Source: Leuconostoc pseudomesenteroides KCTC 3652
GTDB taxonomy: Bacteria > Bacillota > Bacilli > Lactobacillales > Lactobacillaceae
Length of the DNA: 64,000 bases
NCBI RefSeq assembly: GCF_014634745.1
Contig: NZ_BMBP01000007.1
Coordinates: 1 to 64,000, forward strand
Direction of reading: 5' to 3'
Under the pieces are notes generated by a model, which saw only the letters and a list, made by a program, of their open reading frames with translations, did not search any database and was not told the origin of the DNA. Positions 31,751 to 36,832 of the stretch are shown here, piece after piece. Every line of letters starts with the position of its first letter. Within the stretch, counting starts at the first letter, position 1. The translations under genes were made by a program, and so were the position numbers.

Positions 31751-31756
31751 ATTTCT

Positions 31757-32045
31757 AACGTAGAAAAGATAAGTAGTATTCTATCAGATAAAGAGAGTTC
31801 GCGTTTGGTGAGAGCGGATTGTGAGAAAATACGAATATGGTCTTGGAGTGATTAATAGTGTGAGTGATCATTAGATATGAACACAAGCATTGTTCGGGTG
31901 CGCCCGTTATAGCCGCGCCAATTCTTAATTGTTTTTCAGCAATTGATGATTGATGTTGAGGTGTGCTCGCGTGAGCAGCACATAAACACCGGGTGGTAAC
32001 ACGACAAGTCGTCCCGCAGTCTATTAATTTAGACTGCGGTTTTTT
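31757..32045 (+). ncRNA. T-box riboswitch, Met-specific, upstream of second YxjH-type gene
   Basis: Specifier ATG (31837-31839) in the same ATGGTCTTGGAG context as the first element. The T-box core AACACCGGGTGGTAACACG is at 31985-32003. Terminator CCGCAGTCTA/TAGACTGCGG (32014-32039) with a T-run follows. Core and specifier surroundings nearly match the first T-box, pointing to duplication of the regulatory unit together with the gene. Confidence 0.88.
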
Positions 32046-32246: not shown

Positions 32247-33374
32247 ATGACAACACAAACATTACAAAAAATTGGATTCCAACATGTCGGTTCATTTCTA
32301 AGACCAGAAGCATTGAAGGAGGCACGGCAATCGTTTGCTGCAGGTAATATCACAGCTGAGGAACTCGAAGGTGTCGAAAATGCAGCAATCACAGAACTTG
32401 TGAACAAAGAAGTTGAGGCAGGTTTAGATGTCGTCACAGATGGTGAGTTTCGTCGTTCTTATTGGCATTTGGACAATTTCTGGGGATTTGATGGTGTAGA
32501 ACGCTTTAATTACGGCGAAGGCTATTTCTTTGCACATGAAGAAACGCGTGATGATTCAGCGCGTTTGACGGGAAAATTAGGTTTTAATGCGGATACGCAT
32601 CCATTTATCCAACACTTTAAATTCGTCAAAGCTTTGGCAGATGAAGCTGGTGTGGCAGCTAAAATCACGATTCCATCACCCTCGCAATTCTATGGTGAGC
32701 TGAGCCGTGGCGTTAATGTGGAACGCATTGCCGAACATTATGATAGTAATGAAGAATTGTTTGAAGATATTAAACGCGTCTACCATGAAGAAATACTAGC
32801 TTTGTACAATGCTGGTGCACGAACTGTTCAGCTTGACGACTGTACTTGGGGGTTGCTAGTTGATCCAAAGTTTAAGGATGTCTATGCCGCAACTGGATTT
32901 GATATTAATGATTTGAAAAGATTATACCTTGATTTGAATAATGGTGCGATTGCTGATTTGCCTGACGATTTAACCATTAATACACACGTTTGTCGCGGTA
33001 ATTATCATTCTGATTGGGCAACAAGTGGTGGCTATGATGATGTAGCAGATGAGTTATTTGGTCAAGAAAATGTAACCAATTACTTCCTCGAATATGATTC
33101 TGAACGCGCGGGTGGCTTTGCACCGTTGGCAAAAGTATCTGGCGACAAGCAGGTTGTGCTGGGATTAATCACCACAAAATCTGGTGAACTGGAAGATAAG
33201 GGAACTATCATCGCAAGAATCCACGAAGCGACTAAATATTTGCCATTGGATCGGCTTTGGTTATCAACCCAGTGTGGCTTTGCGTCAACCGAAGAAGGGA
33301 ACATTTTGACTGATGCACAACAATGGGCTAAATTACAGTTGGTAAAAGAAATTTTAGATGAACTTTGGGGATAA
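32247..33374 (+). CDS. YxjG/YxjH-type cobalamin-independent methionine synthase-like protein (copy 2)
   Basis: A 375-residue paralogue of the gene at 29224. Same catalytic features: HVCRGNY and QCGFASTEEGN, with QLDDCTWG where copy 1 has QLDDTTWA. The start is ATG 32247 after AGGAG. The in-frame upstream ATG 32220 lacks a ribosome site. It has its own Met T-box, so both copies answer to methionine starvation. Substrate differences between copies are not predictable here. Confidence 0.87.
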   Translation: MTTQTLQKIGFQHVGSFLRPEALKEARQSFAAGNITAEELEGVENAAITELVNKEVEAGLDVVTDGEFRRSYWHLDNFWGFDGVERFNYGEGYFFAHEETRDDSARLTGKLGFNADTHPFIQHFKFVKALADEAGVAAKITIPSPSQFYGELSRGVNVERIAEHYDSNEELFEDIKRVYHEEILALYNAGARTVQLDDCTWGLLVDPKFKDVYAATGFDINDLKRLYLDLNNGAIADLPDDLTINTHVCRGNYHSDWATSGGYDDVADELFGQENVTNYFLEYDSERAGGFAPLAKVSGDKQVVLGLITTKSGELEDKGTIIARIHEATKYLPLDRLWLSTQCGFASTEEGNILTDAQQWAKLQLVKEILDELWG

Positions 33375-33381
33375 GCGAATT

Positions 33382-33439
33382 ATTGTTTTAAAATTAAATT
33401 TATCTTTTTTAAATTAGACTATTGACATTTTAAAACAAT
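33382..33439. repeat. 13-bp perfect inverted repeat around the -35 of the leader promoter
   Basis: ATTGTTTTAAAAT (33382-33394) and ATTTTAAAACAAT (33427-33439), 32 bp apart. The right arm overlaps the last base of the -35 and the spacer. It could be an operator or an AT-rich terminator of the preceding gene. Confidence 0.55.
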
Positions 33440-33450
33440 GGTGTCATAAT
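33422..33450 (+). promoter_or_regulatory. Promoter of the PfoR-like gene leader
   Basis: TTGACA (33422-33427), 17-bp spacer, CATAAT (33445-33450). Start point expected near 33457. Confidence 0.75.
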
Positions 33451-33456
33451 AATTTT

Positions 33457-33663
33457 ATTAACTTAAAGGAAAAATGTTACATGCAACGTCTCAGTGTAAA
33501 CAACTTCACACAAAGCATTCAAATCAACATTGTCGTCATTATTATTTGACTTCAAGGTTGGTTCACTTTGTGATGCTAGCCTTTGATAAAAAGGCTGGCG
33601 TGAAGTTGTCGACTTGAGTCGTATAACTTAAAGGAGCGCTAGTATATCTAGCGCTCCTTTTTT
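33457..33663 (+). ncRNA. Riboswitch-like three-way-junction leader with terminator
   Basis: P1 33500-33509/33600-33609 (10 bp) closes a compact junction. P2 33510-33515/33566-33571 (6 bp, with an inner 6-bp helix 33519-33524/33544-33549) starts directly after P1. P3 33575-33584/33590-33599 (10 bp with one G-U, 5-nt loop) ends directly before P1 returns. A 13-bp terminator hairpin (33630-33642/33648-33660) with T-run follows. It matches none of the T-box, SAM-I or TPP signatures that I know. Two overlapping short ORFs (from 33474 and 33481, after AAAGGA) offer leader-peptide attenuation as an alternative. Confidence 0.6.
33481..33549 (+). CDS. Possible 22-residue leader peptide
   Basis: A short ORF rich in Ile, Val and Asn (begins MQRLSVNNFT). 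AAAGGA lies 10 bases upstream. It overlaps P1, P2 and the inner helix of the leader. A second frame from ATG 33474 runs to 33617 (47 residues, rich in His and Gln). Neither is recognisable as a protein. Confidence 0.3.
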   Translation: MQRLSVNNFTQSIQINIVVIII

Positions 33664-33740
33664 CTTAGAGTTTTTTCATAAGATGCGCAGCTTATGAGCA
33701 AAAAATGGAGCAAGGGCAACAAGCCCAAAGGGGAATTATT

Positions 33741-34880
33741 ATGGACGCAACAGTATCAAAAACGCAATCATCACATGCGACTGACAAAACTGAAAAATTA
33801 CGTGATCGCAAAGCAAATCCGCGAACTGTTCGAGAAGTTGTTTATGACGTCTCACAAGGCATTTCACACGCCATCCTTGCCGTCTTGGGTATGGGATTAT
33901 TAATGGCATCGCTTGGTAACGCATTTCATTTCACACCATTAGTACAGGCTGGATTGATGGGTCAAAAAATGTTGGCACCTGCTTTGGGTGTTGGTATCGC
34001 AATTGCGATGCGTTCAAATTTGCTCACAACTGGTGCTGCCTTAATTGCGGCCACTGTTGGATCTAACGCTGTTTACTTTACTTCGGCAGTTGCACCAGCT
34101 ACCCATACTGCTACGGGATGGGCTGCAGATCAGGCCGCTGGTTCACTAGTGATGACGTCTGGACAACCTATTTCTGCGGTGTTAGCTGCTTTGATGGCAG
34201 TGCTTGTCGGTAATTGGTTAACAGGCAAAACGCCTTTGGACATGATGCTAGTACCATTTGGTGCTGTGTTGGCTGGTACATTCTTTGGCTTAGCTACTGC
34301 ATCTGTGACAACGCCATTCTTGAATTGGGTATCAGAATCACTTGCCTCAACCATGAAAATCAATCCATTCTTGGGTGCGTTTGTTGTCTCAGTTGTTTGG
34401 TTCTTGTTTTTGATGACACCTGCTTCTTCTGCAGCGCTGGCAATTGCGGTTATGCTTGATCCACTATCTGGTGGTGCTGCATTAATTGGTACCACTGCAG
34501 GGTTTGTCGTTTATACAGCAATGGGTTGGAAGCAAAATGATTTGGGTGCCAATTTTGCACAAACGATTGTCACGCCAAAAGTGCAATTTCCAAACTTGCT
34601 TAAGAGTCCGTTATTGATGTTTGGTCCAGCTTTGATTGCCGGAGTTTCTGCGATGGTAGCTGTTGGTATCTTCGGATTGAAAGTTCCATTTGCCATTGCT
34701 GGATTAGGATTGAATGGCTTTATCGCACCGATTGCTTTAGCCTCAAGTGACCCTCGCGGATTGCTGTTAGTGGCAGTCTTTGGTATTGTTGTACCAGTTG
34801 TTGCTTCATTAACCTTTTATTATTTCTTGCGCAAAACAGGACACACTAAAGAAAACGATTTGCATCTTGAAGTTGTTTAA
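33741..34880 (+). CDS. PfoR-like (PTS_EIIC_2, COG3641) membrane protein
   Basis: A 379-residue polytopic protein with about eight to ten hydrophobic segments. It resembles PfoR, the putative toxin-regulator/EIIC-like family, as seen in VSQGISHAILAVLGMGLLMASLGNAF. It lacks EIIA and EIIB partners, and the transported solute is unknown. Placement at the end of the methionine regulon suggests a sulfur amino-acid or related solute (inference). ATG 33741 follows AAAGGGG. The frame from 33705 is longer but lacks a ribosome site. Confidence 0.72.
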   Translation: MDATVSKTQSSHATDKTEKLRDRKANPRTVREVVYDVSQGISHAILAVLGMGLLMASLGNAFHFTPLVQAGLMGQKMLAPALGVGIAIAMRSNLLTTGAALIAATVGSNAVYFTSAVAPATHTATGWAADQAAGSLVMTSGQPISAVLAALMAVLVGNWLTGKTPLDMMLVPFGAVLAGTFFGLATASVTTPFLNWVSESLASTMKINPFLGAFVVSVVWFLFLMTPASSAALAIAVMLDPLSGGAALIGTTAGFVVYTAMGWKQNDLGANFAQTIVTPKVQFPNLLKSPLLMFGPALIAGVSAMVAVGIFGLKVPFAIAGLGLNGFIAPIALASSDPRGLLLVAVFGIVVPVVASLTFYYFLRKTGHTKENDLHLEVV

Positions 34881-34926: not shown

Positions 34927-34987
34927 AATACATAAAAGTAGCGTAGAATATGTTGAGTAATAAATAAATGTATTGAGAGATTATGAT

Positions 34988-36832
34988 ATGTTTCAAAATA
35001 TCAAACGCATCTTGATTGGAAAGCCATTAAAAACGTTGGACGAGGGTGGGCAGTCTTTGTCAAAGACAAAAGCCTTGGCGTTGCTTTCATCAGATGCTTT
35101 ATCATCAGTTGCTTATGGAACAGAGTCAATTACAACAGCCTTATTGGCTGCAGGTGCGGTTGCACTGTGGCTGCAGGTACCAATCGCATTGCTTGTTTTG
35201 GTGCTGTTAGCGGCTATTGTAATGAGTTATCGACAAATTATTCACGCTTACCCATCGGGTGGTGGTGCATATGCTGTGGCAAGTGAAAATTGGGGATCTA
35301 AGGCTGGTTTAGTGGCTGGTGGCTCACTGTTAGTTGACTATATGCTAACGGTTGCCGTTTCAGCGTCGGCAGCGGCAGACGCAATTACGGCAGCTGTGCC
35401 TGCGATTCTACCATTTACGGTACCACTGTCGATTATTGTGGTTTTGCTTTTAACTGGTATGAACTTGCGTGGCCTTCGGGAGAGCGCCAATTTCTTAATG
35501 ATTCCAGTCTATTTTTTTATAACGGTTTTGGCGATTATGATTGCTTGGGGTGTTTTTCAAGCAGTGACTGGACAGTTGCCTTATCATGCTGCGGCTAAAA
35601 TTGGGACTAGCTTTAGTGGCTTATCATTTGTCTTGTTCATGCGTGCCTTTTCAAGTGGGTCATCTTCTTTAACTGGAGTTGAAGCAATTTCCAATGCGGT
35701 ACCTAATTTTAAGGTACCTAAAGAGAAGCACGCGGCATCAACATTAGCTTTGATGGCATTAATTTTGGCAGCATTCTTTGGTGGTATTACTTTTCTAAGT
35801 TATTGGTATGGCATCCACCCTAATGCCCATTCAACGGTATTATCACAGATTGCAATGACAACATTTGGGGGACAAAATATTGGCTTCTATATTGTGCAAT
35901 TAGCGACAGCGATGATTTTAGCTGTTGCGGCGAATACTGGATTTTCGGCTTTTCCGATGTTGGCATTGAACCTAGCGCGTGATAAATATTTGCCACATCT
36001 TTACATGGATAAAGGTGATCGTTTAGGATATTCAAATGGTATTTTGTCATTATCTTTTGGGGCAATCATCTTATTGCTTATTTTTCATGGTTCTACGGAT
36101 GCCTTGATTCCACTGTATGCTGTTGGTGTCTTTGTACCATTTACATTGTCACAATCAGGCATGATAATTCACTGGTGGCATAAAAAACCAAAAAATTGGG
36201 TTTTGAAAGCAGTTATTAATTTTGTTGGCGCCTTTATTTCAGCTGTTTTGGTGATAACGTTGTTTGCCACCAGAATTGAACATGTCTGGCCATACTTGTT
36301 GATTATGCCTGTGGTGATGTTTACTTTTCTAAAAATCAAACATCATTATTTGAGCATTGGTAAACAGTTGAGGCTCCAGTATGCCAAAAATGATAACGCC
36401 GTTCGTCATCATTACGATGGCGCAACGGTAATTGTATTGGTGTCAAATATTACTAAGGTGACGACTGAAGCGATTGATTATGCACAATCAATTGGCGATT
36501 ATGTTGTTGCTATGCATGTTAGTTTTGATGTTAATCCAAAAAAAGAGCTGGAAACTTCAACACAATTTAAGTTGGACTTTCCAGATGTGAGATATGTCGA
36601 TATTCATTCGTCGTATCGTTCCATTGTCAAACCAGCATTGAGCTTCGTTGACGCAGTGGCAAAACAAGCCAAAAAGCGCAATCATTCAGTCACTGTTTTG
36701 GTGCCACAATTCGTGCCTAAAAAGCCTTGGCAAAACGTTTTGCATAACCAAAACTCTTTACGCTTACGAACGGCATTTGCTTCGCGAGAAGATATTTCTG
36801 TTTCAACATATTATTATCATTTAACTGAGTAA
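34988..36832 (+). CDS. KimA-type potassium importer (APC superfamily)
   Basis: A 614-residue protein with about 12 membrane helices and a C-terminal cytoplasmic domain of roughly 150 residues. The N-terminus FQNIKRILIGKPLKT and SSDALSSVAYGTES match KimA (YdaO) of Bacillus, and the K+-binding Asp36 falls at the same position. KimA is a high-affinity K+/H+ symporter inhibited by c-di-AMP. The ydaO riboswitch of Bacillus is not present in the short upstream region. ATG 34988 follows GAGAG. The upstream TTG adds five residues without benefit. Confidence 0.82.
   Translation: MFQNIKRILIGKPLKTLDEGGQSLSKTKALALLSSDALSSVAYGTESITTALLAAGAVALWLQVPIALLVLVLLAAIVMSYRQIIHAYPSGGGAYAVASENWGSKAGLVAGGSLLVDYMLTVAVSASAAADAITAAVPAILPFTVPLSIIVVLLLTGMNLRGLRESANFLMIPVYFFITVLAIMIAWGVFQAVTGQLPYHAAAKIGTSFSGLSFVLFMRAFSSGSSSLTGVEAISNAVPNFKVPKEKHAASTLALMALILAAFFGGITFLSYWYGIHPNAHSTVLSQIAMTTFGGQNIGFYIVQLATAMILAVAANTGFSAFPMLALNLARDKYLPHLYMDKGDRLGYSNGILSLSFGAIILLLIFHGSTDALIPLYAVGVFVPFTLSQSGMIIHWWHKKPKNWVLKAVINFVGAFISAVLVITLFATRIEHVWPYLLIMPVVMFTFLKIKHHYLSIGKQLRLQYAKNDNAVRHHYDGATVIVLVSNITKVTTEAIDYAQSIGDYVVAMHVSFDVNPKKELETSTQFKLDFPDVRYVDIHSSYRSIVKPALSFVDAVAKQAKKRNHSVTVLVPQFVPKKPWQNVLHNQNSLRLRTAFASREDISVSTYYYHLTE

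What the first reader, a model, noticed from the sequence alone, without database searches (positions are those of the whole stretch)
33457..33663. Unassigned three-way-junction leader with terminator before a PfoR-like membrane protein
P1 (33500-33509/33600-33609), P2 (33510-33515/33566-33571) and P3 (33575-33584/33590-33599) abut with almost no linker, which is hard to get by chance. A 13-bp terminator follows, and a consensus promoter precedes. It is not a T-box and does not show the SAM-I, TPP or purine signatures I know. It sits at the end of a Met regulon, so the ligand may be a sulfur metabolite. Short ORFs overlapping the helices leave leader-peptide attenuation as the rival explanation.
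Basis: partly seen in the sequence, partly recalled or inferred. Interest (0 to 1): 0.8.

Follow-up and report, generated by a model that had tools for sequence, protein, structure and literature searches.

The report
Isoleucine/valine leader-peptide attenuator before transporter gene
The stretch is probably not a new riboswitch but a ribosome-sensed switch: a tiny gene full of isoleucine and valine codons whose translation decides whether RNA polymerase goes on into a membrane-protein gene, which suggests that this poorly known protein family takes up branched-chain amino acids.

Summary
The helices, promoter and 13-bp terminator are real (fold z = -10.1), but the three-way junction is not the conserved part: P1 and P2 show little covariation. 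What is conserved is a short ORF, 33481-33549, MQRLSVNNFTQSIQINIVVIII*, ending in Ile/Val codons. A matching leader lies in all 19 Leuconostoc genomes searched (one cut by a contig end) and in related genera, with differing upstream genes. After the ORF lie competing helices A:B, B:C, C:D, D:E, E:F (terminator), the layout of the his attenuator; both mutually exclusive sets covary. [quoted passage not shown] A PF13303 paralogue carries a leucine leader in 19 of 19 Leuconostoc; three Ligilactobacillus PF13303 genes carry T-box-like leaders that I read as Leu. The genome lacks ilvD. Best explanation: Ile/Val-tRNA-sensing attenuation of a PF13303 (PfoR-like) protein, probably a BCAA importer. A new member of a known kind of regulator; the PF13303 link is the new part. 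Nothing was tested at the bench.

The parts
33422..33450 (+). Promoter TTGACA-17-CATAAT
   Evidence: 11 of 12 matches, TG before second hexamer; conserved in the alignment of 18 leaders
33465..33470 (+). Shine-Dalgarno AAAGGA of the leader ORF
   Evidence: read from sequence; similar in the 18 aligned leaders
33481..33549 (+). Leader peptide ORF MQRLSVNNFTQSIQINIVVIII*, Ile/Val codon run directly before the stop
33522..33538 (+). Segment A (Ile/Val codons); pairs with B
   Evidence: covariation
33547..33566 (+). Segment B (stop codon and just after); pairs with A, or with C (33555-33566 with 33570-33582)
   Evidence: covariation
33570..33584 (+).
33590..33601 (+). Segment D (3' arm of P3); pairs with C, or with E as antiterminator (33595-33601 with 33636-33642)
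   Evidence: D:E; C:D
33561..33569 (+). Alternative partner of the terminator 5' arm (33630-33637) in the MFE of the stalled-ribosome state of this sequence
   Evidence: prediction only
33603..33629 (+). Inner stem of the antiterminator (33603-33612 with 33619-33629)
   Evidence: covarying helices 4 and 5
33630..33660 (+). Intrinsic terminator E:F, 13 bp, then a T run
33738..34880 (+). Regulated gene: PF13303 (PTS_EIIC_2, PfoR-like) membrane protein, 380 aa
   Evidence: 225 bits; predicted fold nearest to glucose PTS IIC

Best explanation
A his-type, ribosome-mediated transcription attenuator that senses charged Ile- and Val-tRNA and controls a PF13303 transporter. When Ile/Val-tRNA is scarce, the ribosome stalls on the IVVIII codons; B is free and pairs with C, so D is free and pairs with the terminator's 5' arm E, and polymerase reads into the gene. 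When Ile/Val is plentiful, the ribosome reaches the stop codon and covers B; C pairs with D, E pairs with F, and transcription ends. Without translation, A:B and C:D form and, in the window sequence, transcription should also end. The product is most likely an importer of branched-chain amino acids, made on starvation. Shown computationally: the ORF, its conservation, competing helices with covariation, and the association with BCAA transporter genes. Inferred: the stalling, the direction of the response, and the substrate.
For: (1) In 24 PF13303 leaders the last 9 codons hold at least 5 and on average 6.75 I/V/L in this frame, against 3.0 and 1.0 in the other two, and no earlier stop in 24 of 24 (other frames: stops in 18 and 12). 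The 24 came from DNA, model or gene searches and were placed by their tails, so the contrast between frames is the evidence, not the count. (2) Both alternative sets covary on A1: antiterminator set 87.7% cells paired (shuffled 80.8) and 31 double-change cells (12.7); terminator-side set 92.4% (88.9) and 13 (3.7); 0 of 500 shuffles reach these values or the covariation scores. RNAalifold unaided gave B:C and D:E, on an alignment cut before the terminator's 3' arm. (3) Duplex z below -1: A:B 39 of 39, B:C 35 of 39, D:E 32 of 39 leaders, near-duplicates included. (4) The terminator's 5' arm pairs more upstream with the ribosome at the Ile/Val codons than at the stop in 38 of 39 leaders, by 2 nt or more in 25, by under 1 nt in 5. 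(5) Same leader type before genes of PF05525 (BrnQ) in two other genera, before brnQ2 in this genome, and before a hydratase-like gene plus brnQ in 8 other Leuconostoc loci. (6) Paralogue of the same clade (44% identity) with a Leu leader, 19 of 19 genomes. (7) T-box-like leaders before the PF13303 gene in 3 Ligilactobacillus loci, specifier read as CUC (register from a legend in PMC5794164). (8) No ilvD in the own genome.
Against: No expression data. In the window the MFE of the stalled-state RNA keeps C:D and pairs E with 33561-33569, not with D, so B:C and D:E there need kinetic formation. D:E duplex z is above -1 in 7 of 39 leaders (both Convivina, G019, Fructobacillus L071, L164, L002, the own Leu leader) and only -1.1 in the window. 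In 6 of 39 the untranslated RNA pairs E upstream by 1 nt or more beyond the stop state, against termination without translation there. G019 shows the reverse order (its PF13303 gene is a 98-aa remnant). D:E itself hardly varies, and 'further pair types' is no better than shuffles for A:B+C:D (498 of 500) and modest for the other set (23 of 500). 62 of 80 PF13303 relatives show neither leader nor T-box. At the gathering score no T-box is found before those three Ligilactobacillus genes; L091 scores 45.3 bits against 93, and the specifier is my reading.
Confidence: 0.87

Rival explanations
1. A metabolite-binding riboswitch (three-way junction P1/P2/P3) with a terminator, ligand perhaps a sulfur compound.
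For: Very stable fold in this sequence, helices abut; metE-like and luxS genes nearby; P1/P2 pair better than slid partners.
Against: P1 and P2 covary little and P1 is weak in several relatives; the stretch shared by the more distant Leuconostoc hits of the DNA search is the ORF's end and just after it (query about 44-97); the leader goes with the PF13303 gene, not with Met genes; no Rfam match at gathering score.
Confidence: 0.03
2. The nascent peptide itself, not tRNA charging, stalls the ribosome (as in tnaC or erm leaders, recalled) in response to another signal.
For: NFT and other residues are also conserved in most Leuconostoc leaders.
Against: Peptide sequence outside the I/V run differs between genera; the paralogue has Leu codons instead; other targets are BCAA transporters.
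Confidence: 0.05
3. A constitutive or protein-regulated premature terminator with a chance short ORF.
For: The terminator is strong by itself.
Against: Covarying mutually exclusive helices and codon conservation over genera; in the own genome only 1 of 12 sites with five Ile/Val codons plus stop passed a script that asked for a Shine-Dalgarno site and a terminator.
Confidence: 0.05

Closest known systems
his operon attenuator of enteric bacteria (A-F layout recalled; general account in PMC9413887 passages)
   Same: Leader peptide with control codons; alternating pairings A:B/C:D/E:F versus B:C/D:E; intrinsic terminator.
   Different: Ile/Val instead of His; before a transporter gene in a Gram-positive; no Rfam match to the window leader.
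BCAA leader-peptide attenuators of ilv operons in Firmicutes (S. aureus ilvD, L. monocytogenes; predicted in L. lactis and Streptococcus; PMC5794164 and PMC6123439 passages)
   Same: BCAA-rich leader peptide, terminator/antiterminator, Gram-positive.
   Different: Those control biosynthesis; here uptake-type genes are controlled. My script found no such leader on ilvD's own strand in the 6 of 19 Leuconostoc that have ilvD.
T-box riboswitches of BCAA transporters (PMC2494555 passages)
   Same: Same signal (uncharged BCAA tRNA) and transporter classes; three PF13303 relatives carry a T-box-like leader.
   Different: No ribosome or leader peptide; no T-box match over the window leader.

Membership tests
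Ribosome-mediated (leader-peptide) transcription attenuator | Translatable short ORF with start, SD and a run of control codons near its end | tested here: met
   translation itself not assayed
Ribosome-mediated (leader-peptide) transcription attenuator | Mutually exclusive terminator and antiterminator pairings supported by covariation | tested here: met
   (A:B, B:C, C:D, inner stem); D:E itself is nearly invariant, supported
Ribosome-mediated (leader-peptide) transcription attenuator | Intrinsic terminator between leader ORF and regulated gene | tested here: met
Ribosome-mediated (leader-peptide) transcription attenuator | Read-through rises when the cognate charged tRNA falls | not testable with these tools
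   needs reporter or transcription assay
Ribosome-mediated (leader-peptide) transcription attenuator | Regulated gene belongs to the metabolism of the sensed amino acid | tested here: inconclusive
   PF13303 function unknown; brnQ with the same leader type fits
Metabolite riboswitch / known Rfam family | Match to a described family, or covarying junction helices | tested here: not met
T-box riboswitch | Rfam T-box match over the leader | tested here: not met
   T-box only at 31752-32019, none over 33457-33663
PTS enzyme IIC (sugar transport) | IIC fold and a IIB partner | tested here: inconclusive
   Nearest solved fold is glucose IICB, TM 0.55, E 1.1e-5; the protein matches PF13303 alone and the next gene is an amino acid permease; IIB was not sought elsewhere

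The most novel reading that the evidence does not exclude
One clade of PF13303 (PTS_EIIC_2/PfoR-like) proteins, with an EIIC-like fold but working outside the sugar PTS, are branched-chain amino acid importers; in Leuconostoc two paralogues are wired to different amino acids by different leader peptides (Ile/Val and Leu), and in Ligilactobacillus the leader is replaced by a Leu T-box.
Probability: 0.6. Interest if true: 0.65.

Novelty: new member of a known kind. Interest (0 to 1): 0.5.

Why it matters
It gives a function to test for a widespread membrane family: 188 of 295 genomes sampled from the window's order have a PF13303 match, 173 over the cut-off, and the one paper found by searching for PF13303 mentions it only as a PTS motif. 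It also suggests leader-peptide attenuation of several uptake genes in bacteria where T-boxes often do this work, in a genus where 13 of 19 genomes lack ilvD, and offers a clean case of two paralogues that differ in the amino acid sensed.

Tried and rejected
Riboswitch reading: rejected on P1/P2 covariation and conservation pattern. The other possible start, ATG 33474, opens a His-rich frame (MLHATSQCKQLHTKH...): rejected because the ATG 33481 frame is the one kept open and I/V-rich in relatives. Rfam low-score hits: weak, most over the terminator. L020-L022 left out: L020 is a weak hit with no such leader, L021/L022 are the terminator palindrome on the other strand. L019 (G018) was left out of alignment A1 because its contig ends inside the leader; L142 (G011) came later and is not in A1. 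T-box motif hits in L082 (-611) and L086 (in what looks like coding sequence) not counted. Other I/V/L-rich peptides flagged by the script (for example L074, L103, L119, L121, L133) were judged chance and not followed. Own-genome R1 hits L245-L247: no leader seen; L248 not looked at. DNA search of plasmids: no match. Sequence search of solved structures: no match. NCBIfam: no family for the window protein. Literature: 10 searches; none of the titles listed concerned this leader or PF13303 as an amino acid transporter. Only passages of PMC5794164, PMC6123439, PMC2494555, PMC2965389, PMC3766115, PMC9413887 and PMC6952197 were seen, no whole text.

Full report
Observation. The fold is far more stable than shuffles (z -10.1, 0 of 200). 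No Rfam family matches the leader at its gathering score.

The short ORF. From ATG 33481, behind AAAGGA, runs MQRLSVNNFTQSIQINIVVIII*. A DNA search of 60 genomes matched 20, among them 18 of 19 of the window's genus. A covariance model built from 18 of these leaders, 17 of the genus and one of another (A1), matched 29 of 397 family genomes, including all 19 of the genus (G018's copy is cut by a contig end). Named loci point to Leuconostoc: G014, 99% identical in the leader, has the contig length of the L. falkenbergense record. Relatives carry MHMSSSYNFTNLITISVVIII*, MYLSATDNFTIVIKINAVIIM*, MSYLNANNFTAIIVVNIIVIII* and others; Convivina MKTISTSQLNQIIVISQIVIII* and Fructobacillus ...NNSNIIVAIIIIT*. 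Over 24 PF13303 leaders (near-duplicates L002, L005 and L161 left out; one, G019, precedes a gene remnant) the last nine codons hold on average 6.75 Ile/Val/Leu in this frame, at least 5, against 3.0 and 1.0 in the others; 0 of 24 have a stop inside the 19 codons before the real stop, against 18 and 12 of 24. These leaders were placed by their tails, so only the contrast between frames counts. In the own genome five Ile/Val codons plus a stop occur 12 times (13 for the reversed pattern); only the window site passed a script that asked for a Shine-Dalgarno site and a terminator. That pattern cannot find the brnQ2 leader of this genome, whose Ile run ends in Ser before the stop.

The switch. In window coordinates A is 33522-33538, B 33547-33566, C 33570-33584, D 33590-33601, E 33630-33642 and F 33648-33660. 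Pairings are A:B, B:C (33555-33566 with 33570-33582), C:D (33573-33584 with 33590-33601), D:E (33595-33601 with 33636-33642, inner stem 33603-33612 with 33619-33629) and E:F. On A1 the antiterminator set (structure taken from L012) pairs in 87.7% of cells, has 10 of 29 pairs with double changes (15 of 500 shuffles as many), 31 double-change cells against 12.7, and 30 further pair types (23 of 500). The A:B plus C:D set pairs in 92.4%, 5 of 19 pairs with double changes (2 of 500), 13 cells against 3.7, but 12 further pair types, below the shuffled mean of 13.5 (498 of 500). For both sets 0 of 500 shuffles reach the paired percentage, the double-change cells or the covariation score. D:E is nearly invariant (5 of 6 pairs never vary), so it gains no covariation support; the inner stem does. 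RNAalifold unaided gave B:C and D:E, on sequence that ends before the terminator's 3' arm. Shuffles do not remove relatedness; sliding the partners by 1-3 columns cuts paired cells to 20.8-47.1% and 15.6-45.8% for the two sets, and to 37.4-55.3% for P1+P2.

Ribosome positions. With the RNA folded up to the terminator's 5' arm and the ribosome at the Ile/Val codons or at the stop, the arm pairs more with upstream RNA in the stalled case in 38 of 39 leaders: by 2 nt or more in 25, by under 1 nt in 5 (L012, L014, L157, L164, L025); G019 is reversed, and its PF13303 gene is a 98-aa remnant. In 6 of 39 the untranslated RNA pairs the arm upstream by 1 nt or more beyond the stop state. In the window the stalled-state MFE keeps C:D and pairs the arm with 33561-33569, a stretch the ribosome at the stop would start to cover, rather than with D; B:C plus D:E there would have to form kinetically. 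Duplex energies against 200 shuffles of one segment: A:B z below -1 in 39 of 39, B:C in 35, D:E in 32. The 39 include near-duplicates.

Company it keeps. The same leader type precedes genes of PF05525 (BrnQ) in G325 and G385 (402.2 and 388.9 bits). Among 23 Leuconostoc brnQ loci scanned, 8 have such a leader about 970 nt upstream, before a hydratase-like gene seen in L166; the script missed brnQ2 of the window's own genome, which by eye and by tail search has MTNQFATTKQIIISIIIIS* and a terminator; for the other 14 it listed none. brnQ1 of this genome has a T-box (98.4 bits) whose specifier I read as GUA, Val. Of four PF13303 genes in this genome, the window's and the one on C2 are 44% identical, the other two about 25%. 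The C2 gene has the leader MTKHMTIKFNNALLLNLQLI*, and all 19 Leuconostoc searched have a Leu leader there, LLLNLLLI* in 16 of 19. Of 80 PF13303 relatives (the best 80 of 92), 14 carry a readable Ile/Val leader (13 by script, L062 by eye), one (L064) is cut by the contig end inside the leader, three Ligilactobacillus loci (L075, L091, L092) carry a T-box motif and terminator with a specifier that reads CUC in the register codon-A (register from the legend cited), and 62 show neither. None of the three T-boxes before PF13303 reaches Rfam's gathering score; the one scored, L091, has 45.3 bits, E 9.1e-9, and simple folding does not show a canonical Stem I.

Need for uptake. ilvD (PF00920) is absent from 13 of 19 Leuconostoc, the own genome among them, while all 14 control genomes have it. 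In the six that have it the script found no leader on ilvD's own strand.

The protein. PF13303, 225 bits; AlphaFold model pLDDT 76.6, pTM 0.70 from 17 sequences; the three solved structures with E <= 0.001 are all glucose PTS transporters or models of them (best 8qsr, E 1.1e-5, TM 0.55, 12% identity). So an EIIC-like carrier fold is likely; the substrate is inferred only from regulation.

Novelty. BCAA leader-peptide attenuators in Firmicutes are known or predicted for ilv operons (PMC5794164, PMC6123439; passages seen), and switches between T-boxes and leader peptides have been described (PMC2965389 passages). None of ten searches of an open-access library listed a paper on this leader or this function of PF13303; that library lacks most subscription papers. 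I therefore call it a new member of a known kind, with a new and testable functional prediction.

Noticed in passing
L249, L252, L254 (Leuconostoc), divergent from ilvD: An HTH_3-type regulator gene (PF01381 scanned in L249 only) divergent from ilvD appears to have its own BCAA leader (MNNTYQPNNQNNILVLLVITR* in L249, MKNVKNNQIILSLLIIC* in L254; in L252 an Ile/Leu run seen by eye), suggesting a leader-controlled regulator of BCAA synthesis.
   Followed up: partly
L189 (G016) and L191 (G017): Orphan leaders MNKIISATTKLILSVIVIIT* / MNKTMSVTNQLILSVIVIIT* with a terminator; my scan listed no ORF of 80 aa or more downstream on that strand within the locus: perhaps attenuators whose gene was lost.
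   Followed up: partly
L203 (G000:C2, brnQ1): T-box before brnQ1 with a specifier I read as GUA (Val), so in this genome several different RNA sensors appear to serve BCAA uptake genes.
   Followed up: partly
L159 (G019): The leader is kept but the PF13303 gene behind it is shortened to 98 aa (only the C-terminal part matches the family), and the predicted switch runs the wrong way there.
   Followed up: partly
window 31752-32019: T-box (94.5 bits; AUG in the specifier loop by my reading) upstream of the metE-like gene at 32247.
   Followed up: no
L166 1669-2460: A 2-keto-4-pentenoate hydratase-like protein (below NCBIfam cut-offs) sits between the Ile leader and brnQ; its role there is unexplained.
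   Followed up: no
window 34973-36832: An amino acid permease gene (PF13520) follows the PF13303 gene directly; whether it is co-transcribed was not examined.
   Followed up: no
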